Source of the DNA: Clostridia bacterium
Lineage (GTDB): Bacteria; Bacillota; Clostridia; Oscillospirales; CAG-272
DNA length: 41,053 bases
Direction of reading: 5' to 3'
NCBI GenBank assembly: GCA_017399145.1
Contig: JAFQEG010000040.1
Coordinates: 1 to 41,053 of the forward strand
Shown: positions 22,664 through 30,407 of the stretch, piece by piece
How the letters are laid out: every line of letters begins with the position of its first letter
Position numbering within the stretch: position 1 is the first letter of the stretch
Notes under the pieces: model-generated
Seen by the model: only the letters and a program-made list of their open reading frames with translations
Told to the model about the DNA's origin: nothing
Database searches by the model: none
Program-made: the position numbers and the translations under genes

Positions 22664-25366
22664 TTATTCGATATCAAGATTCAAAAAATGCTTCAATGTT
22701 TTGTCTAATTGGTGATCTATGTCATCTTGGAATTGCTCTAACGAATGGAATAGTTCGTTAAGCATATTTTGTTTGAAATCTCTCATTTTTTGATAATACT
22801 CAATGAATTTTAATTGCATATCTTGATCTATTTTTCCGTTCTTTACGGGTACACAAATAACAATTTGCTCTAAATAACTATTATTTGCTTTAAATCTAAA
22901 ATCCAAAGAATATTGCTTTTTCATGTCTTGAATGTAGTAGTACACATACAAGGGGTTTATTTCTGAATTTTTGATAGAAAAAACCCTTCTAGATGTGTTG
23001 ATGTAAAATGGAGATTCATGGTAAAAAATATTCGTTCCGGCAGTACCGTCACCATCAGAAGCGAATGATATTAAAGGAGCCTCTTTTGAACATTTTAACG
23101 GTTCAGACTTGAATGAATTAAAATACGCTACGGGTTTTCTGGCGGCAGTATAAACAGGAATATCTTGAGGATTCTTGGTATCTAAAACAGCATATTGTTT
23201 TCTAGTAAGTCCTAACCCAAAAGGAATAAATTCAAAATTGCTTTCATCTGTTAAAGAAAAAGATATATATTCGGTATCGTCGTCTTTAATTTCGCCAATT
23301 AGTTCGTTCAATGAAGATTTAATATTTCTGAATTTTTGAACGACATGATCGATTTCTTCAATTATATCATCTGAGGTTAACTCTTTTTCTTCTTCTTTTA
23401 TCCCTAATTCGACTAATTCATTGTCGCTCCAATAATTTTCAATTAACCAATTTAAATTTGATTTTATTTTATTAAACTCAACCAATTTAATCCTTTTACT
23501 TGTTGATTGATATGAATCATTATCAAAAGCGAACTTTTTGTATTCTTTTGAGATTTCCAACAAATCATTTTCCGAACTAGGAATTCTATCCGAATCCAAT
23601 GTCTCTCCAATTTGACTAACTAACCCCAAGAAAACACTATTCTGTTGTAACACTTCGGGACTGCTCTTTTTTGTTAGGCATAAAATATATGTTTTCTTGC
23701 TAGTCGCATAAAATGTTTTTAGAGGCAAAGATATTATACCATTTACAAAGCATTCTGATATTATTTTTTCTTTTAAAGCATTATCTGTTGGACGATAAAA
23801 GAAGCCGTCTGGTAGAATTACAAAAGCTTTTCCGTTTGGCTTCAACTCGGCTATTATCTTTTGCAAAAACAGTCCTTCTTTTCCAATCGCTGTTGTATTG
23901 TAATGTTTTTTTAATGAGTGTCTTTCGTCTATATACTTTGTATATAATCCTTTTCCTGAAGAAATATATGGAGGGTTTGACATTATTAAATCATATCTAC
24001 ACTCATCCACAGTTTCCAAGGAACCTATAATACTTTTGTTATGCAATTCAAAGACATTTGAAAAAGTTTCAGAAAATCTTTCTGTCAAAGAAGAATTTTG
24101 AGCAACTAATTCGATCAATGTTATTAAATAATTTGCCTTTGCCAATATAATTGTCAGTTCATCATAGTCTGTTCCTCGATAATCAATAGAGGATAAAATG
24201 TCGCCGTTTTTTACACTATAATCAATTATTCCATTTGATCTTCTATTTAAAACCGTTTCCGAAATAAATCCTCCCACTCCGCAAGCTGGATCACAAACAG
24301 AAGATCCATTAGGCAGATTTTTAACATTTGCCATTTCAACTATAGCTTTTACCACATTTCTCGGTGTGAAAAATTGCGCTAATTGTTTTTTCCCCGTTGT
24401 GCTTTTTAAAAAATCTTCAAACAATCTACTTTTAAAAGCAGGATCGATATTATCTAGTCGACCATTCTCTTTGAAAGCTTTTAATACATCAAAAAACAAT
24501 TCGTCTTGATTTTGATCTTTTTTCAAACTTAAGCCATTAATTATAGTGGTTCCGTCTTTCCCTATAGGGAAAAGTTTTTTTATGTATGGACGAACGTTCG
24601 CAAGATAATATTTTAAACAATATCCTTTTCCTTTATCGTAAACCGTTTCAAAATCTATCGAATTGCCGTTCTCATCGAATTTTAATATTTTTTTGTCGCT
24701 CAAAAACTTAAAAATAAACAATTCGGTGAATGTCATTAAACATTTTTTAGGATCATCTCCGGTAGACATATATACAGATTGCCAAACTTTTTTTGCCAAT
24801 GCAGAAGGAGAAACCATTTGCGCAGGTCTAATTAGATGGTTACTTTCGGTAATTGTGCTAGAAAGCAGTTCTATTGTATTAATCGATTCGGCAGATGTTT
24901 GGTCAAAATATTCTTTAAAATAAGTATTATTCTCATTTCGAATAAAACAAAATCCTCGTTCTTTTTGCTCTTCATTATCAAAATATTTATAATCCCAATC
25001 CTTCTTGCTAGCTCTTGGATTTATCCAATAAAATTCAATTCCGTCAGTAATAATGCAAATTTTAGCGTTACATACTTGAGCGTAATTGTTGCATTGCTCG
25101 AATGCTATGTGTTTTTTATGTTCAGTATTAAATTCGCTAGGTTGTTTGTATTCAATAACGCAAATTACGATTGGGTTTTGTTTGTTCCTTCTGTCACAAA
25201 TCAGTGCGTCTGGACATTTGTTTCTATATTTGCCCCAATTCAACTTAGGAACTATTAAATTATTCTCAAGGTCTGCGAAATTTGTTTTACCTATATTGTA
25301 ATATTCATATTCACCGAAACGATCACCGTGTTTAAGGTACCTCTTCTGTATCAATTCTTCACTCAT
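22664..25366 (-). CDS. Single-chain restriction-modification-specificity protein (type IIG / type I-like)
   Basis: 900 aa. Residues about 20-120: nuclease domain with P52-D53 and E72-Y-K74, a PD-x18-ExK site of the HsdR_N type. Residues about 170-320: HsdM-type helical N-terminal region. Residues 325-560: N6-adenine methylase with motif I DPACGVGGF (359-367) and motif IV NPPY (464-467). Residues about 670-890: a type I S-like target-recognition domain followed by a coiled helix. No helicase/translocase motor is present, so it should cut near its site like type IIG enzymes, not translocate like type I. It overlaps the RHH gene by 8 nt. It is more AT-rich than neighbouring core genes, fitting acquisition by transfer. 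Confidence 0.88.
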   Translation of the reverse strand: MSEELIQKRYLKHGDRFGEYEYYNIGKTNFADLENNLIVPKLNWGKYRNKCPDALICDRRNKQNPIVICVIEYKQPSEFNTEHKKHIAFEQCNNYAQVCNAKICIITDGIEFYWINPRASKKDWDYKYFDNEEQKERGFCFIRNENNTYFKEYFDQTSAESINTIELLSSTITESNHLIRPAQMVSPSALAKKVWQSVYMSTGDDPKKCLMTFTELFIFKFLSDKKILKFDENGNSIDFETVYDKGKGYCLKYYLANVRPYIKKLFPIGKDGTTIINGLSLKKDQNQDELFFDVLKAFKENGRLDNIDPAFKSRLFEDFLKSTTGKKQLAQFFTPRNVVKAIVEMANVKNLPNGSSVCDPACGVGGFISETVLNRRSNGIIDYSVKNGDILSSIDYRGTDYDELTIILAKANYLITLIELVAQNSSLTERFSETFSNVFELHNKSIIGSLETVDECRYDLIMSNPPYISSGKGLYTKYIDERHSLKKHYNTTAIGKEGLFLQKIIAELKPNGKAFVILPDGFFYRPTDNALKEKIISECFVNGIISLPLKTFYATSKKTYILCLTKKSSPEVLQQNSVFLGLVSQIGETLDSDRIPSSENDLLEISKEYKKFAFDNDSYQSTSKRIKLVEFNKIKSNLNWLIENYWSDNELVELGIKEEEKELTSDDIIEEIDHVVQKFRNIKSSLNELIGEIKDDDTEYISFSLTDESNFEFIPFGLGLTRKQYAVLDTKNPQDIPVYTAARKPVAYFNSFKSEPLKCSKEAPLISFASDGDGTAGTNIFYHESPFYINTSRRVFSIKNSEINPLYVYYYIQDMKKQYSLDFRFKANNSYLEQIVICVPVKNGKIDQDMQLKFIEYYQKMRDFKQNMLNELFHSLEQFQDDIDHQLDKTLKHFLNLDIE

Positions 25367-25541
25367 GTTTTTTCTCCTTCAAATCCTTTGCGAGTATTTC
25401 AGTCAAATACTGATTAACGCTATATCCGCGCTCTTTTTTCTTTTTCTTTTGCACTACTTCCATCATTTGCTCGTAAAGCTCGGGCGGTAGCCGCAAGGGA
25501 ATCGGAATTTTTTGCTTTGTTGGGGTATCTGATTTATTCAC
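25359..25541 (-). CDS. Ribbon-helix-helix (Arc/MetJ-type) small DNA-binding protein, probable RM regulator
   Basis: 60 aa with a GTG start preceded by GGAGGTGG. The core PIPLRLPPELYEQMMEVV...GYSVNQYLTEILAKDL has the RHH pattern: a short beta-strand (IPLRL) and two helices, with SVNQYLTEIL as the second. A Lys-rich stretch (QKKKKKERG) separates them. It overlaps the start of the RM gene by 8 nt, so the two are coupled. A perfect dyad lies over the promoter just upstream, consistent with autorepression that delays the nuclease, the job done by C-proteins in other RM systems. That regulatory role is inference. Confidence 0.75.
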   Translation of the reverse strand: MNKSDTPTKQKIPIPLRLPPELYEQMMEVVQKKKKKERGYSVNQYLTEILAKDLKEKKHE

Positions 25542-25796: not shown

Positions 25797-25817
25797 TGGG
25801 TGCGGAGGTGGGATTTG
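25797..25817 (-). repeat. Duplicate of the tRNA-Met 3' end
   Basis: Identical over 21 bases to 26073-26093 (the last 21 nt of the initiator tRNA with CCA), in the same orientation, 276 bp away. It is followed, on the minus strand, by its own hairpin terminator. This is the signature left by an element inserted at a tRNA 3' end. Confidence 0.75.
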
Positions 25818-26072: not shown

Positions 26073-26150
<78 letters not shown>

Positions 26151-26306: not shown

Positions 26307-26436
26307 GTGTTTTTTTCATTTTTTTATCAAGTCCAAACAAGCCCTTTCAGGTTACATTAAAGTATATTCCGTTGATATTTATTTTATTCACTTTTTTATA
26401 AATACCGAGAATTTTTTAATTATTTGCAAAAACCTA

Positions 26437-26465
26437 TTGCAATTTGATAAAACTTATGCTATAAT
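26437..26465 (+). promoter_or_regulatory. Promoter of tRNA-Trp
   Basis: TTGCAA (26437-26442), 17-bp spacer, TATAAT (26460-26465), 18 bases before the tRNA-Trp 5' end. Confidence 0.8.
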
Positions 26466-26482
26466 TCATAGGTAAAATTTAT

Positions 26483-26558
26483 AGGGGTGTAGTTCAGTCG
26501 GTAGAACACCAGTCTCCAAAACTGGGTGTCCAGGGTTCGAGTCCTTGCGCCCCTGCCA
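26483..26558 (+). tRNA. tRNA-Trp (CCA)
   Basis: 76 nt with encoded CCA. Acceptor AGGGGTG / CGCCCCT, discriminator G, anticodon loop CTCCAAA giving anticodon CCA. T-stem CAGGG/CCTTG. Its last 25 bases are the left attachment core of the integrated element; the gene is complete because the element supplies the 3' end. Confidence 0.95.
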
Positions 26559-26560
26559 AA
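26534..26560 (+). repeat. attL core (tRNA-Trp 3' end)
   Basis: 27 bases from GGTTCGAGTCC to CTGCCAAA, identical to 30138-30164. It overlaps the T-arm, acceptor and CCA end of tRNA-Trp. Confidence 0.92.
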
Positions 26561-26564
26561 GACT

Positions 26565-26606
26565 AAAGCCTTGTAATTACTGAAAATTCAGTTATTACAA
26601 GGCTTT
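26565..26606 (+). terminator. Element-borne terminator for tRNA-Trp
   Basis: 20-bp arms AAAGCCTTGTAATTACTGAA / TTCAGTTATTACAAGGCTTT with a single mismatch, then TTTCTTTATTTTTT. It replaces the host terminator, which now stands after attR. Confidence 0.85.
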
Positions 26607-26620
26607 TTCTTTATTTTTTG

Positions 26621-26686
26621 CATTCCTTTTCATTCCTTTACATTCCGTTTTATTACTTGCATTTTTTCGTCAAAATTTCGTCAAAA
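26621..26686 (+). other. Integrase arm-type repeats
   Basis: CATTCC occurs three times at 10-bp spacing (26621, 26631, 26641), then TTTCGTCAAAA twice in tandem at 11-bp spacing (26665-26686). Spacing near one helical turn next to the attachment core fits binding by the integrase N-terminal domain or an excisionase. Confidence 0.6.
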
Positions 26687-26707
26687 TTATATTAGTTTTT
26701 GCCACTA

Positions 26708-26766
26708 AAAAATGGAAAAAGAAAATGACACCACATATTAAAGTGTCATTTTCTTTTTCCATTTTT
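26708..26766. repeat. Perfect 24-bp inverted repeat (hairpin)
   Basis: AAAAATGGAAAAAGAAAATG... (26708-26731) and its exact complement (26743-26766) around an 11-base loop. Far longer than an ordinary terminator; T-runs on both strands allow it to stop transcription both ways. Confidence 0.85.
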
Positions 26767-26783
26767 CTATACGTTTTATTTTT

Positions 26784-26945
26784 TCACTCCGTGGGCACTC
26801 GCCGAGGGCAGAAGGGTTGCGCCCTTTTGTCGCACCCTTCGGGTGTAAGTGTGGGTGCGTTTTTGCCAAGGCGTCAAGAGTTTTCTCGGCATAAAATTTT
26901 ATTCCAATTTCCTCTTGACACCTTTAGTTTGGGTGCGTTGATTTT
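26784..26945. other. GC-rich structured non-coding segment inside the AT-rich element
   Basis: Contains nested inverted repeats: CACCC-TTC-GGGTG (26833-26846 region), CGCACCC/GGGTGCG around it, and GGCGTCAAGAG (26870-26880) / CTCTTGACACC (26911-26921). GGGTGCGTT occurs twice. No codon-like ORF on either strand is credible. Base composition is unlike the rest of the element, so it is a candidate structured RNA or protein-binding region. Confidence 0.45.
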
Positions 26946-27038
26946 TCATTTTTCCATATCCATTGATTGATTTAGAAACTTTGTTTTAAAGTTAAAAAAT
27001 ACCAAGATAAAAAACAACAAACAAAGCAATCGGTTTTT

Positions 27039-27090
27039 ATTAAGTATTTTATTTTAAATACTTTATTATTAAGTATTTTATTATTATATA
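27039..27090. repeat. AT-rich AAGTATTTTATT repeats
   Basis: AAGTATTTTATT occurs twice in direct orientation with an inverted AATACTTTATT between, forming an almost pure A/T stretch immediately before the 15-bp iterons. This resembles the AT-rich unwinding region that accompanies iteron origins. Confidence 0.5.
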
Positions 27091-27110
27091 TTTAATTAAG
27101 TGAGGTTTTA

Positions 27111-27170
27111 CAATATGTTGAAAAACAATATGTTGAAAAACAAGACGTTGAAAAACAAGATGTTGAAAAA
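27111..27170. repeat. Four 15-bp iteron-like direct repeats
   Basis: CAATATGTTGAAAAA twice, then CAAGACGTTGAAAAA and CAAGATGTTGAAAAA, with no gaps. Inverted partial copies (TTTTTCAAC) follow at 27188-27204. Non-coding. Period 15 is a multiple of 3, but no ribosome site or longer frame supports translation. Confidence 0.85.
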
Positions 27171-27335
27171 CCGCACTTGTTTTTCATTTTTCAACATTTT
27201 TAAATTCATTTCAAATGAGCATTAGAATCGCACTTTATTAAACACAAAATAACATGTTACAAATTATGAACAAATTATTAAATGAGCATTAGGCGTGTGC
27301 TTGTCTTGATACGAGTAACAACAAAACAATAAAAT

Positions 27336-27402
27336 AAAAAACCGAGGCAAAACGAAAAATGCTAAACCGCTTTTTTTCGTTTTGCCTCATCTCGGTTTTT
27401 AA
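27336..27402. repeat. Long imperfect hairpin
   Basis: AAAAACCGAG...CTCGGTTTTT outer arms and GCAAAACGAAAAA / TTTTTCGTTTTGC inner arms around a short loop, about 66 bases in all. It sits just beyond the end of the repressor gene and may end its minus-strand transcript or act as a single-strand structure. Confidence 0.7.
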
Positions 27403-27404
27403 TA

Positions 27405-27458
27405 TTTTAGTTGTGTTTTAGTTGTGTTTTAGTTGTGTTTTTGTTGTGTTTTAGTTGG
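27405..27458. repeat. Five 11-bp tandem repeats
   Basis: TTTTAGTTGTG repeated almost exactly five times (the fourth unit has A to T, the fifth ends in GG). Located between the hairpin and the 3' end of the repressor gene. Confidence 0.85.
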
Positions 27459-27486
27459 TTAAAATTCTATCGCACACGTAGTATAA

Positions 27487-27771
27487 TTATATTAAATTAT
27501 AAAATAATTCGTTTACATCAATTGCAAAAATTATAGACAGTATTAGTATATAATAACAACTTGGTTCCCTTGTACCTTGTTCCCAATTTGCGTAGGTGCT
27601 AACTCTCAAATTTAATTGTTCAGCAACTTCTTTTTGCGTTAAACCTTTTTTTAGTCTTATTTCTTTTAATCTTTTAGCAAAATTTTGTCTAAATAATGCT
27701 TGGTTTTGATTTTCTTGTTTTTTTAAATTTTCTATTTTTTCTACTAAAATATTTTTCTCTAATTCTTTCAT
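27487..27771 (-). CDS. Cro/CI-type XRE helix-turn-helix repressor
   Basis: 94 aa. Residues 33-90 carry the XRE fold: RLKEIRLKKGLTQKEVAEQL (helices 1-2) then NLRVSTYANWEQGTREPS (recognition helix and turn). Residues 1-28 are a Lys/Glu-rich, coiled-coil-like extension, possibly for dimerisation; there is no CI-type C-terminal domain. It diverges from the S24-fold gene, with two matching operators between them. The ribosome site is GGTGA before the ATG. Most likely the element's master repressor. Confidence 0.85.
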   Translation of the reverse strand: MKELEKNILVEKIENLKKQENQNQALFRQNFAKRLKEIRLKKGLTQKEVAEQLNLRVSTYANWEQGTREPSCYYILILSIIFAIDVNELFYNLI

Positions 27772-27795
27772 AATTCACCAAATTAAATAAAACTA

Positions 27796-27846
27796 TTGAC
27801 AAATACACACTTTGTGTATATAATGGTAATGTACACGTTACGTGTA
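27796..27846 (+). promoter_or_regulatory. Consensus promoter with twin repressor operators
   Basis: Perfect -35 TTGACA (27796-27801), 17-bp spacer, perfect -10 TATAAT (27819-27824). The spacer contains a perfect dyad ATACACA-CTT-TGTGTAT (27803-27819). A second dyad, TACACG-TTA-CGTGTA (27832-27846), lies at the start site. Both fit TACAC-N5-GTGTA. Such a strong promoter must be tightly repressed in the integrated state. Confidence 0.85.
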
Positions 27847-27922
27847 TAAAGTCATTTGTTTTTATTTATTTTAACACAGAAAAAAAACAAAGTCAACAAA
27901 TTAAAAAGAAAGGTGTAAAACA

Positions 27923-28261
27923 ATGAAAAAAAAGTATTATGAAACACAAATTCCAAACAAAGAAACAGAAAAAGCAAATTTCTGCATTGCTATTAAAGAC
28001 GATTCCTTAATAGACTTTAACATAAAAAAAGGAAGTTACCTTTTAGTAAAAGCACAAAACACTATTGAAAATGGAAATTTAATTGTTTTTTCAGTAGATA
28101 ATAACATTTTAATTTCTCGTGTGTTTTTTTATGAAAATAATGCGATTTTAACCAATGGTTACAATGACAAAGAACCATTGACAATAAAAAAAGAAAGTCT
28201 TTTAAAAGACTTAAAAATTTTAGGTAAAGTAATTGCGTGTCAATTTCCTATTGAACTTTAG
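27923..28261 (+). CDS. Stand-alone S24/LexA-type C-terminal domain protein without catalytic lysine
   Basis: 112 aa. The sequence follows the LexA/UmuD/CI C-terminal fold: KDDSLIDFNIKKGSYLLVKA (catalytic-serine region, S28), ENGNLIVFSVDNNILISRVFF, and the closing KDLKILGKVIACQFP. In LexA and UmuD the catalytic lysine stands 37 residues after the serine; here that position is S65 (ISR instead of VKR), so self-cleavage is unlikely. There is no helix-turn-helix. AAAGGTG precedes the ATG. First gene of the lytic-direction operon. It may pair with the divergent HTH protein, or act as an anti-repressor; both are inference. Confidence 0.75.
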   Translation: MKKKYYETQIPNKETEKANFCIAIKDDSLIDFNIKKGSYLLVKAQNTIENGNLIVFSVDNNILISRVFFYENNAILTNGYNDKEPLTIKKESLLKDLKILGKVIACQFPIEL

Positions 28262-28274
28262 AAAGGAGAGTATT

Positions 28275-28451
28275 ATGAAAGAAATAACACAAATCACATT
28301 GACAGACGAAGAACTCGAAATGTTATCGTTTTCAGTTAATTTTTTAAACTATCTTTTAGAAAAGACAGAAAATTTAGAAATTACAAAAGATAAATTCGAA
28401 GAACTGAACGAAACATTAAACAAAACTAAAACACATAAAATAGGTTTTTAA
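28275..28451 (+). CDS. Small acidic protein of unknown function
   Basis: 58 aa from the ATG at 28275, with AAAGGAGAG 5 nt upstream. Begins MKEITQITLTDEELEMLS. Predicted to be almost wholly helical and acidic, with no known motif. It is placed where small integrative elements usually encode an excisionase or replication helper, but it lacks the basic winged-helix look of an excisionase. 13 nt after the S24-fold gene. Confidence 0.65.
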   Translation: MKEITQITLTDEELEMLSFSVNFLNYLLEKTENLEITKDKFEELNETLNKTKTHKIGF

Positions 28452-28466
28452 GGAAAGGAAAAAACA

Positions 28467-29102
28467 ATGATAAAATTTTTCAAAGAATTAATTGAAGACG
28501 ATAAGAAACAAAATGAAATTAGAAAAATCAAAGAGGAACGAGATAATATTTTTCGTTATACCGTAATTGGTCGGAAGTACAGACCTACAGAAGAACAGTA
28601 TTACAAATTTGAACATAGAAATATACATTTCGGTGTAGATTTATCATTTTACAAAAATGACACATTTAAAGATTGCAAAAAATTATTAGATTTCAATGGG
28701 GAAAATTTATACGTTTATGGTTCAAATGAACAAATTCAAATTAAAGAAAGAGCTATAGAATTATTTAAACAATATGGTATTAGGTGGAGAGACATTGTCT
28801 TATTTTGGTGTGAAGAAAATGACAAAGATTTCAATGCTATAATGAAAGAATATAAAATTGACATTATAGCAAATTTAATTTTTAATTTCGAGCCTGACTA
28901 TCTAATAGATGCAACTGAGCAACACATTGAAAATTTTATAAATGACAATTATATTTCAATAGATATTTTGACAAAAGCAGAAAACAAAGAATTAAAAGAA
29001 TATTTACTGAAAAGTATTTTTGAATTTGCACATTCAAAAAAATTTATACCGAATAATATTTACACGGAGTACGAAAATGATAAAAAAAAGAAAAGATGGT
29101 AG
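28467..29102 (+). CDS. Unknown 211-aa element protein
   Basis: AAGGAAAGG precedes the ATG. The N-terminal 40 residues are highly charged (EDDKKQNEIRKIKEERD). The remainder mixes helices and short strands (RWRDIVLFWCEENDKDFN), and the C-terminus is basic (YENDKKKKRW). No catalytic motif is recognised. Its 3' end overlaps the integrase start by 26 nt, implying coupled translation. As the largest non-integrase protein of the element, it is the best candidate for its main function, such as replication, interference or defence, but nothing in sequence decides. Confidence 0.65.
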   Translation: MIKFFKELIEDDKKQNEIRKIKEERDNIFRYTVIGRKYRPTEEQYYKFEHRNIHFGVDLSFYKNDTFKDCKKLLDFNGENLYVYGSNEQIQIKERAIELFKQYGIRWRDIVLFWCEENDKDFNAIMKEYKIDIIANLIFNFEPDYLIDATEQHIENFINDNYISIDILTKAENKELKEYLLKSIFEFAHSKKFIPNNIYTEYENDKKKKRW

Positions 29103-30108
29103 ATATGCAAAAGTTGTAATAGACAACAGAGGGAAAAAGCATTATTTTTACGGTAAAACCATAAAAGAAATAAATCAAAAAATGTTAGAATTTAATGCAA
29201 CAATAGAGAAAGGTGAATTATTTGAAAAAATAGCACTTCAATGGTGGGAAGAACACGAAAAGAATTTAGCATTGCAAACAATTTCTTCATATAAACCGGC
29301 ATTGAATAGAGCAATTGACGAATTTGGAAAAATTCCAATAAAATCAATTAAAACAAATGACATACTTAAATATATTAAAAAACTTGAATTAAGAGGGTAT
29401 GCACAAAAAACTATTGCAAATCACAAATTAGTATGTAATTTAATTTTTAGATATGCAATTTTAGAAGAATACATAGAAAACAACCCTTGTACAATAATAA
29501 AAATACCTAAAGGGTTACCAAGAAAAAAAAGAACTTCTGCAAGTAACCAAGACGAGCAAATTATACTTAATTCTTTCGACCTTTGGCTATTCCCATATAT
29601 TGCACTATTAACAGGTATGCGAAAAGGCGAAATTTTGGCTTTAAAGTGGTCGGACATAGATTTTAACAAGAATATAATAAACGTGTCAAAATCGGTATGT
29701 TACCATCGTGGAAATGCAATTATTAAATTGCCTAAAACAGAAAATGGAATTAGAATTGTTCCATTACTTAATAGATTAAAAAAAGTTTTATTGAAACAAA
29801 ACATTATTAAAGAAAACTATATATTAAGTGATGACGGAAAAAACCCACTTTCACAAAAAAGATATAGAACACTCTATAAAAAATTTAAAAATGAAACGGG
29901 AATAAATTGCACAGCCCACCAATTAAGACATAGTTTTGCAACATTTGCATTTGAAAGTGGTGTCCCAATAAAATCAATACAAAACTTATTAGGACACGCA
30001 CAAATTTCAACCACTATGGACATATACACAGATTTTAGAGAAAAGTCTTTAATAGATGCAAGTGAAATATTAAATGATAAATTGTCAAAAAAAAGTCAAA
30101 ACTCTTAA
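29077..30108 (+). CDS. int: Tyrosine recombinase/integrase
   Basis: 343 aa from the ATG at 29077 (GGAG 8 nt upstream); a longer reading has no ribosome site. Residues 1-45 resemble the AP2-like arm-binding domain (KDGRYAKVVIDNRGKKHYFY), 48-150 the SAM-like core-binding domain, and 155-335 the catalytic domain with R182 (GMRKGE), K220, H281-x-x-R284 (HQLRHS), H307 (LLGHAQ) and nucleophile Y317 (MDIYTDF): all six catalytic positions are intact. It lies 30 bases from attR, the usual place. Expected to integrate into and excise from the tRNA-Trp 3' end. Confidence 0.95.
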   Translation: MIKKRKDGRYAKVVIDNRGKKHYFYGKTIKEINQKMLEFNATIEKGELFEKIALQWWEEHEKNLALQTISSYKPALNRAIDEFGKIPIKSIKTNDILKYIKKLELRGYAQKTIANHKLVCNLIFRYAILEEYIENNPCTIIKIPKGLPRKKRTSASNQDEQIILNSFDLWLFPYIALLTGMRKGEILALKWSDIDFNKNIINVSKSVCYHRGNAIIKLPKTENGIRIVPLLNRLKKVLLKQNIIKENYILSDDGKNPLSQKRYRTLYKKFKNETGINCTAHQLRHSFATFAFESGVPIKSIQNLLGHAQISTTMDIYTDFREKSLIDASEILNDKLSKKSQNS

Positions 30109-30137
30109 AAGTGCACATTTTATTGAAATTTAACAAT

Positions 30138-30164
30138 GGTTCGAGTCCTTGCGCCCCTGCCAAA
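30138..30164 (+). repeat. attR core (tRNA-Trp 3' end copy)
   Basis: Perfect 27-base copy of 26534-26560. It is followed at once by the host's original tRNA-Trp terminator. Confidence 0.92.
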
Positions 30165-30197
30165 AAATACGACAAGTTTCAGCTTGTCGTATTTTTT
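30162..30197. terminator. Original host terminator of tRNA-Trp, now after attR
   Basis: Perfect 15-bp arms AAAAAATACGACAAG / CTTGTCGTATTTTTT with a 6-base loop; T-runs both ways, so it can also end the integrase transcript. Confidence 0.9.
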
Positions 30198-30200
30198 ATT

Positions 30201-30370
30201 CAAGCCGCAGGCTTGGTATGGAATCACGCGTAAGCGTGTATGGTATCGCCGTAGGCGCATGGCATCACCGAAGGTGCATTTTCTGCGGCTTGATTCCATA
30301 CCGTCTTGCAACCGGATTCCATACAATGCTTTGCATTGATTCCATACACGCCTTTGGCGTGATTGAGACA
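30201..30370. repeat. Mosaic array of small hairpins with conserved linkers
   Basis: Short hairpins (ACGCGTAAGCGT, GCCGTAGGC, ACCGAAGGT, AATGCTTTGCATT, ACGCCTTTGGCGT) are separated by a linker close to GTATGGAATC. In the left half the linker reads GTATGGNATC, in the right half its complement GATTCCATAC, so the array is a large inverted repeat around TTTTCTGCGGC. Non-coding; bases 30371-30407 hold no signal. Confidence 0.75.
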
Positions 30371-30407
30371 CGTGAGTTCAAATTTTGAGGTATTAAATTC
30401 GTTCTTT

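What the first reader, a model, noticed from the sequence alone, without database searches (positions are those of the whole stretch)
26534..30164. Minimal 3.6-kb integrative element in tRNA-Trp with unknown cargo
Seen: perfect 27-bp direct repeats of the tRNA-Trp 3' end, an intact tyrosine integrase beside attR, a divergent repressor, and only three other proteins, none recognisable as relaxase, replicase, capsid or toxin. Composition is much more AT-rich than the host. Inference: a satellite that depends on a helper phage or plasmid, or a tiny autonomous element whose 211-aa protein carries an undescribed function.
Basis: partly seen in the sequence, partly recalled or inferred. Interest (0 to 1): 0.75.

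Follow-up and report, generated by a model that had tools for sequence, protein, structure and literature searches.

The report
Tiny satellite-like element in tRNA-Trp
A 3.6-kb mobile DNA element sits in a tRNA gene of what is probably a gut Clostridia bacterium; it has its own integrase and an origin-like sequence shared with some larger phage-like prophages, but no replication or export genes, so it may live as a parasite (satellite) of such prophages.

Summary
Confirmed: exact 27-bp repeats (26534-26560, 30138-30164) bound a 3.6-kb integrative element in tRNA-Trp, with five complete ORFs and GC 0.27 against 0.39 for the rest of the window.

Larger elements of the genus use the same site and integrase family. 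One (genome G021) is about 20 kb and phage-like, with a G2P-type Rep, a membrane P-loop protein, pIII-like and coat-like proteins and PcfJ. The window keeps its gene order but lacks the whole Rep/morphogenesis operon; 928 bp of structured non-coding DNA stands there instead.

That DNA holds GGCGTGTGCTTGTCTTGATACGAG, identical 24/24 beside a G2P-type Rep in G024 and containing the pC194-type nick TCTTG/ATA.

Best reading: a Rep-less satellite of filamentous-phage-like prophages. Against it: no helper found in this 76%-complete genome; the origin's 3' arm is eroded; 15 of 23 other tabulated motif loci show no Rep in the fetched flank; and several larger elements with this integrase lack the motif.

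p211 is an orphan in a slot where relatives often carry nuclease or defence-like genes. The 112-aa protein is an S24 domain whose catalytic lysine is replaced. Structure prediction never ran.

The parts
26483..26558 (+). tRNA-Trp (cca), target gene, left intact
   Evidence: ARAGORN and Rfam RF00005
26534..26560 (+). attL core, 27-bp direct repeat
   Evidence: exact repeat of 30138-30164
26565..26606 (.). hairpin/terminator immediately inside attL; similar sequence after the tRNA in G021, G020, G027, G002 and in the tRNA-Ser element of G013
26665..26688 (+). direct repeats TTTCGTCAAAA, candidate integrase arm-type sites; similar repeats in G021, G020, G027, G002
26708..26766 (.). perfect 24-bp inverted repeat, 11-nt loop
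26868..26924 (.). inverted repeat AAGGCGTCAAGAG/CTCTTGACACCTT; 28 nt (26912-26939) 93% identical to the G013 compact element, E 2e-7
27110..27171 (+). four iteron-like 15-bp repeats ACAAGATGTTGAAAA, not present in the G013 left region
27291..27314 (+). candidate rolling-circle origin: 5' arm and nick motif GGCGTGTGCTTGTCTTGATACGAG
   Evidence: 24/24 in G024:C20 (beside Rep), G010:C33 and G013:C46 (no Rep found)
27472..27478 (+). possible residual 3' arm GCACACG pairing with CGTGTGC of the motif
   Evidence: DNA fold of 27275-27490, z -6.2; 26 of 1000 shuffles reach a 7-mer
27405..27457 (+). tandem 11-bp repeats TTTTAGTTGTG
27487..27771 (-). HTH_3 repressor, 94 aa (P0001); 41-43% identical to the HTH of the G013 element
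27796..27824 (+). consensus promoter TTGACA-17-TATAAT of the rightward operon
   Evidence: only 12-of-12 match in 26400-30400; promoter-like sites as a whole are not enriched there (28 found, 22.1 in shuffles)
27803..27819 (.). palindrome ATACACACTTTGTGTAT, candidate operator 1 (different letters at the same place in G013)
   Evidence: by eye
27831..27847 (.). near-palindrome GTACACGTTACGTGTAT, candidate operator 2
   Evidence: by eye
27923..28261 (+). stand-alone S24/LexA C-terminal-like domain, 112 aa (P0002); Ser kept, catalytic Lys replaced by Ser
28275..28451 (+). 58-aa protein (P0003), 35% identical in alignment to a 63-aa protein at a like place in the G013 element
28467..29102 (+). 211-aa orphan protein (P0004) in the cargo slot
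29077..30108 (+). tyrosine integrase, 343 aa (P0005)
30084..30101 (+). GTCAAA repeats next to attR, candidate right arm-type sites
   Evidence: by eye
30138..30164 (+). attR core, 27-bp direct repeat

Best explanation
The locus is a 3.6-kb integrative satellite. Its tyrosine integrase recombines the 3' end of tRNA-Trp (shown by anatomy, not by experiment). An HTH repressor holds a divergent consensus promoter through two operators and so silences S24-p58-p211-int (inferred). After derepression and excision the circle is replicated in trans by the G2P/HUH-type Rep of a co-resident filamentous-phage-like prophage that nicks the shared motif at TCTTG/ATAC (inferred from motif identity with a subset of such elements). 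It may leave the cell through that prophage's export machinery as single-stranded DNA (a guess). p211 is most likely cargo, in the slot where relatives often keep nuclease or defence-like genes. The stand-alone, lysine-less S24 domain is most likely a non-cleaving regulatory partner, perhaps of a helper's CI-type repressor.
For: Same site and integrase family in larger elements: the integrases of G021, G008 and G002 (52-57% identical) are each followed by the tRNA-Trp tail. The G021 element, about 20 kb at that site, has a G2P Rep (PF23343, 2.5e-12), PcfJ (2.6e-33), an HTH-S24 repressor, a P-loop protein with about four hydrophobic N-terminal segments, and proteins with N- and C-terminal hydrophobic segments, in the window's gene order plus the leftward operon. 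The P-loop family lies on the same 17-20-kb stretch as this integrase kind in 4 of 8 long stretches read (G025, G055, G200, G243). Origin motif: 20 sites, the window's included, in 15 of 295 family genomes; 0 for the reversed-pattern control. A G2P-type Rep match ends 165-189 nt from the motif in 8 of 23 non-window loci tabulated (one of the 8, G027:C16, has a 3-mismatch copy). In viral contigs the 21-nt motif occurs in one contig, also the one contig found there with a P-loop relative and a Rep. pC194 nick sequence seen in PMC5037232 (passages). G013:C63 is a second compact element: terminator, IR, AAATGAGCATTAG, HTH, promoter layout and a p58 homologue are shared.
Against: No PF23343 and no P-loop homologue in the window's own genome (76% complete), so no helper is shown. 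Only the 5' half of the origin hairpin is intact; the 7-nt residual arm is reached by 26 of 1000 shuffles. 15 of the 23 tabulated non-window motif loci have no Rep in the fetched flank (many flanks are about 1.5 kb or cut by contig ends), and two further loci with weaker copies (L318, L325), left out of that table, showed no REP353 match either. The core CTTGTCTTGA is absent from 11 of 12 stretches of larger relatives checked, among them Rep-bearing G055, G200, G243, G004 and G005 and the partial tRNA-Trp elements of G020, G027, G002 and G008; only G024:C124 had it. G021 has it in a diverged setting. The annotated-phage record MT835493, with Rep and P-loop relatives, lacks TTGTCTTGATA in the 32 kb read. 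So the motif marks a subset of such elements. The larger elements are not proven filamentous phages: no Zot or other family match, and no significant PDB match, for the P-loop protein. PF23343 also rings in 3 of 14 control genomes. No reads were available. This HTH type was found in 2 of 375 genomes only.
Confidence: 0.45

Rival explanations
1. Deletion remnant: a once complete tRNA-Trp prophage that lost its replication and morphogenesis operon and now persists passively, with integrase and repressor still intact.
For: Gene order equals the G021 prophage minus the leftward operon. The origin hairpin is half eroded. No helper in the genome. The motif is rare among the larger relatives checked.
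Against: tblastn with the G021 reference proteins finds no Rep or P-loop fragment in the element. All five ORFs are complete. The non-coding part matches an independent compact element in another tRNA in several places (28 nt at 93%, E 2e-7; 34 nt at 85%; 55 nt at 78%) and by four exact matches of 13-16 nt, two of them window copies of one G013 sequence (0 of 300 shuffles reach four). Promoter layout is kept there while operator letters differ.
Confidence: 0.25
2. Autonomous mini-replicon: p211 is an undescribed initiator that binds the 15-bp iterons, so no helper is needed for replication.
For: The window has four iteron-like repeats and no Rep; the G013 element has a Rep downstream of its p58 homologue and no copy of the iteron core in its left region. 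p211 has no convincing family match.
Against: p211 lies in the slot that relatives often fill with nuclease or defence-like genes and its gene overlaps int; the rolling-circle motif would then be unexplained.
Confidence: 0.15
3. Integrative mobilizable element moved by conjugation, with an inverted repeat acting as oriT for a helper's relaxase.
For: Inverted repeats such as 26868-26924, kept in the G013 element; PcfJ, known from conjugative plasmids (recalled), occurs in larger relatives.
Against: No relaxase match in the element; the shared motif goes with a G2P-type Rep where a replication gene is seen.
Confidence: 0.1

Closest known systems
RS1, satellite of the filamentous phage CTXphi
   Same: Small satellite of a rolling-circle filamentous phage; RstR-type repressor (best NCBIfam match of the window HTH, 5e-12, 46 bits against a cut-off of 80); RS1 counteracts the phage repressor (passage in PMC11389934).
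   Different: RS1 brings its own rep gene and integrates by host XerCD (recalled); the window element has its own integrase and no rep, and probably a Clostridia host.
pDolos, plasmid satellite of an inovirus
   Same: Satellite of a single-stranded DNA phage (named in a passage of PMC11389934; original paper not held).
   Different: An autonomous plasmid by the title in that reference list; the window element is integrated and Rep-less.
PICI, P4-like and PICMI phage satellites
   Same: Integrase plus regulator in a small chromosomal island (recalled; search listings only).
   Different: Helpers are tailed phages (recalled); here no primase, capsid-remodelling or packaging gene was recognised and another helper is proposed.
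G021:C4 57959-78130 phage-like prophage at tRNA-Trp
   Same: Same attachment site, integrase 56% identical, same gene order, similar hairpin and arm repeats, diverged origin hairpin.
   Different: About 20 kb, with Rep, P-loop, coat-like and PcfJ genes.
G013:C63 compact element in tRNA-Ser
   Same: HTH 41-43% identical, p58 homologue, same promoter layout and cis sequences.
   Different: Carries its own G2P-type Rep; different operator letters and diverged origin; no S24 gene seen; right end not seen (contig ends).

Membership tests
Integrative element (site-specific, tRNA) | Direct repeats of a tRNA 3' end, intact integrase next to one of them | tested here: met
Integrative element (site-specific, tRNA) | Flanks joined in relatives lacking the element | tested here: inconclusive
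   18 of 29 genomes have another sequence after tRNA-Trp; in 5 of them about 30-55 bp beyond the core align with the window's right flank, but this is partly a dispersed repeat and the next host gene was not found in 22 short loci
Phage satellite | Lacks structural/morphogenesis genes of its own | tested here: met
   5 proteins scanned in four libraries, none matched a structural family convincingly; p58 and p211 have no assigned function
Phage satellite | Shares a replication or packaging signal with a helper | tested here: inconclusive
   Motif 24/24 with Rep-adjacent G024:C20, but only the 5' half is intact and most larger relatives checked lack the core
Phage satellite | Induction, replication or packaging depends on a helper | not testable with these tools
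   No experiment; no helper found in the own genome
Inovirus (for the proposed helper) | pI/Zot morphogenesis ATPase | tested here: inconclusive
   P-loop protein with about four hydrophobic N-terminal segments, no Zot match; Roux et al. count N-terminal-TM forms as atypical but asked for Zot as nearest domain and one or two TMs (passages)
Inovirus (for the proposed helper) | Rolling-circle Rep | tested here: met
   PF23343 REP_ORF2-G2P 2.5e-12 in the G021 element; the family is not confined to phages (3 of 14 control genomes)
IME | Relaxase of its own | tested here: not met
   No relaxase match
IME | oriT used by a helper | not testable with these tools
   Inverted repeats present, no known oriT to compare
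LexA/S24 autoprotease | Ser-Lys dyad and N-terminal DNA-binding domain | tested here: not met
   Lys column is Ser in P0002 while the four relatives have Lys; no HTH part

The most novel reading that the evidence does not exclude
A new class of minimal integrative satellites in gut Clostridia that exploits an undescribed group of G2P-replicated, integrase-bearing filamentous-like prophages: it mimics the helper's origin, competes for the same attachment site, switches its own operator specificity, and carries a proteolytically dead S24 domain that poisons the helper's cleavable repressor, plus a new defence gene (p211).
Probability: 0.18. Interest if true: 0.8.

Novelty: new variant of a known kind. 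Interest (0 to 1): 0.58.

Why it matters
[quoted passage not shown] The origin motif makes helper dependence directly testable and gives a handle for finding further elements in metagenomes.

Tried and rejected
p211 function by homology: no relative in viral contigs, genome contigs, phages, plasmids or the other 95 of 96 relatives. Of 394 order genomes, one further hit (7.5e-4) lies in a frame that I recognise as RpoB and was rejected. Weak PADLOC hits of p211 (0.0015 and 0.0096) and PDB hits (best 0.23) were judged chance.

Structure prediction of P0004 was asked for 26 times; the queue was full each time and no fold was obtained.

Helper in the own genome: none found. Identity of the P-loop protein: best PDB profile match 0.34, not significant; no NCBIfam match in 3 members, one weak Pfam match among 11. 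Left-arm DNA in the genus: apart from the origin motif and G013:C63, short AT-rich hits, not used. Motif copies as further satellites: the contexts of six loci and eight more were read; several copies seem to lie in host intergenic DNA without integrase or Rep and stay unexplained. The blastn part failed on unsupported gap costs; it was redone with default costs.

Literature: searches listed no integrase-bearing Rep-less inovirus satellite that I recognised by title or abstract start; this rests on those listings of an open-licence library. One term was a mistyped sequence.

Full report
Observation. The element is bounded by an exact 27-bp repeat of the tRNA-Trp 3' end at 26534-26560 and 30138-30164. 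It has an HTH protein on the minus strand (27487-27771) and, on the plus strand, a 112-aa, a 58-aa and a 211-aa gene and a 343-aa tyrosine integrase that ends 29 bp before attR. GC is 0.267 against 0.392 for the rest of the window. The first 928 bp (26559-27486) hold no convincing gene but fold as single-stranded DNA far better than shuffles (z -11.7, 20 shuffles).

Site occupancy. In 29 genomes of the genus, the sequence after tRNA-Trp is element-like in 5 (G000, G021, G020, G027, G002), different in 18, cut by a contig end in 2 (G001, G008) and not found in 4 (G006, G011, G016, G022). G008 shows the right end with a 56-57% identical integrase and the att tail. Among the 18, five align with the window's right flank directly at the tRNA, over about 30-55 bp beyond the core. 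This flank is partly a dispersed repeat, and the next gene was not seen in 22 short loci.

Larger relatives. The integrase of G021 (56%) closes an element of about 20 kb at the same tRNA-Trp. It encodes a G2P-type Rep (PF23343), an HTH_36 initiator-like protein, PcfJ, an HTH-S24 repressor and a zinc-ribbon protein with a nuclease-like C-terminal part. It also has a 735-aa protein with about four N-terminal hydrophobic segments and a Walker-A-like motif, clearest in G200 and G243, and 644-, 287- and 269-aa proteins with an N-terminal and a C-terminal hydrophobic segment. The 735-aa family occurs in 10 of 29 genomes of the genus and PF23343 in 11 of 29; neither was found in the window's own genome. 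Of eight long stretches ending in this integrase kind, four hold the 735-aa family (G025, G055, G200, G243) and four do not (G135, G201, G320, G054); it also lies near attL in the partly held tRNA-Trp elements of G020, G027 and G002. Integrase similarity does not fix the site: the 56% identical integrase of G025 is followed by another tail. I call the larger elements filamentous-phage-like; they are not proven inoviruses.

Same layout, missing operon. In G021 the order is attL, hairpin, arm repeats, origin hairpin, Rep and the leftward operon, HTH(-), HTH-S24(+), cargo, integrase, attR. The window has the same order without the operon between origin and HTH. The hairpin right after the core and GTCAAA-type repeats are similar in G021, G020, G027 and G002.

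Origin motif. A DNA search with 26600-28470 drew attention to 27289-27315. As GYGTGYGCTTGTCTTGAYACGA with up to one mismatch it has 20 sites, the window's included, in 15 of 295 family genomes, and none for the reversed pattern. Many sites are the 5' arm of a hairpin closed by GACAAGCACACGCC. In a table of 24 loci (window, 22 genome loci, one viral contig) a G2P-type Rep lies in the fetched flank in 8 of the 23 non-window loci, its match ending 165-189 nt from the motif; 15 have none. Two further loci with weaker copies (L318, L325) were not in that table and had no REP353 match. In viral contigs the 21-nt core occurs in one contig, the one found there with a 735-aa relative.

Against a general rule: the core CTTGTCTTGA is absent from 11 of 12 stretches of larger relatives, including Rep-bearing G055, G200, G243, G004 and G005, and TTGTCTTGATA is absent from the 32 kb read of phage record MT835493, which has Rep and 735-aa relatives. 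G021 has the core in a diverged hairpin. Only some Reps of this group would therefore fit the window's origin.

The motif contains TCTTGATA; the pC194 origin quoted in PMC5037232 reads, on the other strand, TATTAT/CAAGATAAGAAAGA, so the nick would be TCTTG/ATA. The same paper says that origins of this plasmid family can lack hairpins (passage). In the window the 3' arm is reduced to GCACACG at 27472; a 7-nt match is reached by 26 of 1000 shuffles, and the DNA fold pairs it with the motif.

A second compact element. G013:C63 has, after tRNA-Ser, a similar terminator, arm repeats, the inverted repeat around CTCTTGAC, AAATGAGCATTAG, a homologous HTH (41-43%), the same promoter layout with other operator letters, and a p58 homologue (35%), followed by its own G2P-type Rep; its contig ends before any integrase. 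blastn of the two left parts gives 28 nt at 93% (E 2e-7), 34 nt at 85% and 55 nt at 78% in the non-coding region, and 105 and 56 nt over HTH and promoter. Four exact matches of 13-16 nt are shared, two of them window copies of one G013 sequence; 0 of 300 shuffles reach four, and with a 12-nt threshold 1 of 300. The HTH type occurs in 2 of 375 genomes at 1e-15. Kept positions with changed operator letters suggest different immunity groups (inference).

Regulators and cargo. P0002 is an S24 domain without HTH; aligned with four fused repressors it keeps the serine but has Ser where they have Lys, so autocleavage is unlikely. p211 has no detected relatives. Of eight proteins that I picked from the interval between repressor and integrase in relatives (one is itself an HTH protein), four match PADLOC candidate-defence or defence models (L017 and G021: PDC-S69; L019: PDC-S09, with nucleotidyltransferase domains in Pfam; L024: PglW, with NERD in Pfam). 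A fifth has an Mrr endonuclease domain (L018), and L021 and the 91-aa L178 protein do not fit. Other proteins of that interval were not scanned. This supports, but does not show, a defence-type cargo role for p211.

Mechanism and limits. Integration by the element's own integrase is well supported by anatomy. Repression by the HTH protein is likely. Replication in trans by a helper Rep is inferred from the motif, and export by the helper is a guess. The missing helper, the eroded hairpin, the Rep-less motif copies and the motif-less larger relatives keep confidence just under one half. Literature: PMC6813254, PMC11389934 and PMC5037232 were seen in passages; other papers only as search listings.

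Noticed in passing
window 22664-25366 (-): 900-aa ORF that looks, by eye, like a fused N6-methylase and specificity protein of a restriction system (NPPY motif), in a stretch of about 0.31 GC, with a 60-aa ORF at 25359-25541.
   Followed up: no
window 25797-25817 and 26073-26093: 21-nt exact repeat covering the 3' end of tRNA-Met, 276 bp apart; a possible att remnant of another island.
   Followed up: no
window 36690 and 36959: 28-bp exact direct repeat.
   Followed up: no
L317 (G010:C33), L322 (G003:C40), L319 (G013:C46), L332 (G307:C66) and others: Solo or half copies of the origin motif without a Rep match in the fetched flank; possibly traces of Rep-mediated insertion or of lost elements.
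   Followed up: partly
L177 (G008:C130): Genes on the tRNA-Trp side of this contig include a 374-aa protein that looks TIR-like by eye and an 810-aa protein.
   Followed up: no
L318 (G010:C51): Island-like region near tRNA-Arg with a serine-recombinase-like gene (by eye), two motif copies flanking a 98-aa relative of a G021 prophage protein, and restriction-like genes by eye.
   Followed up: partly
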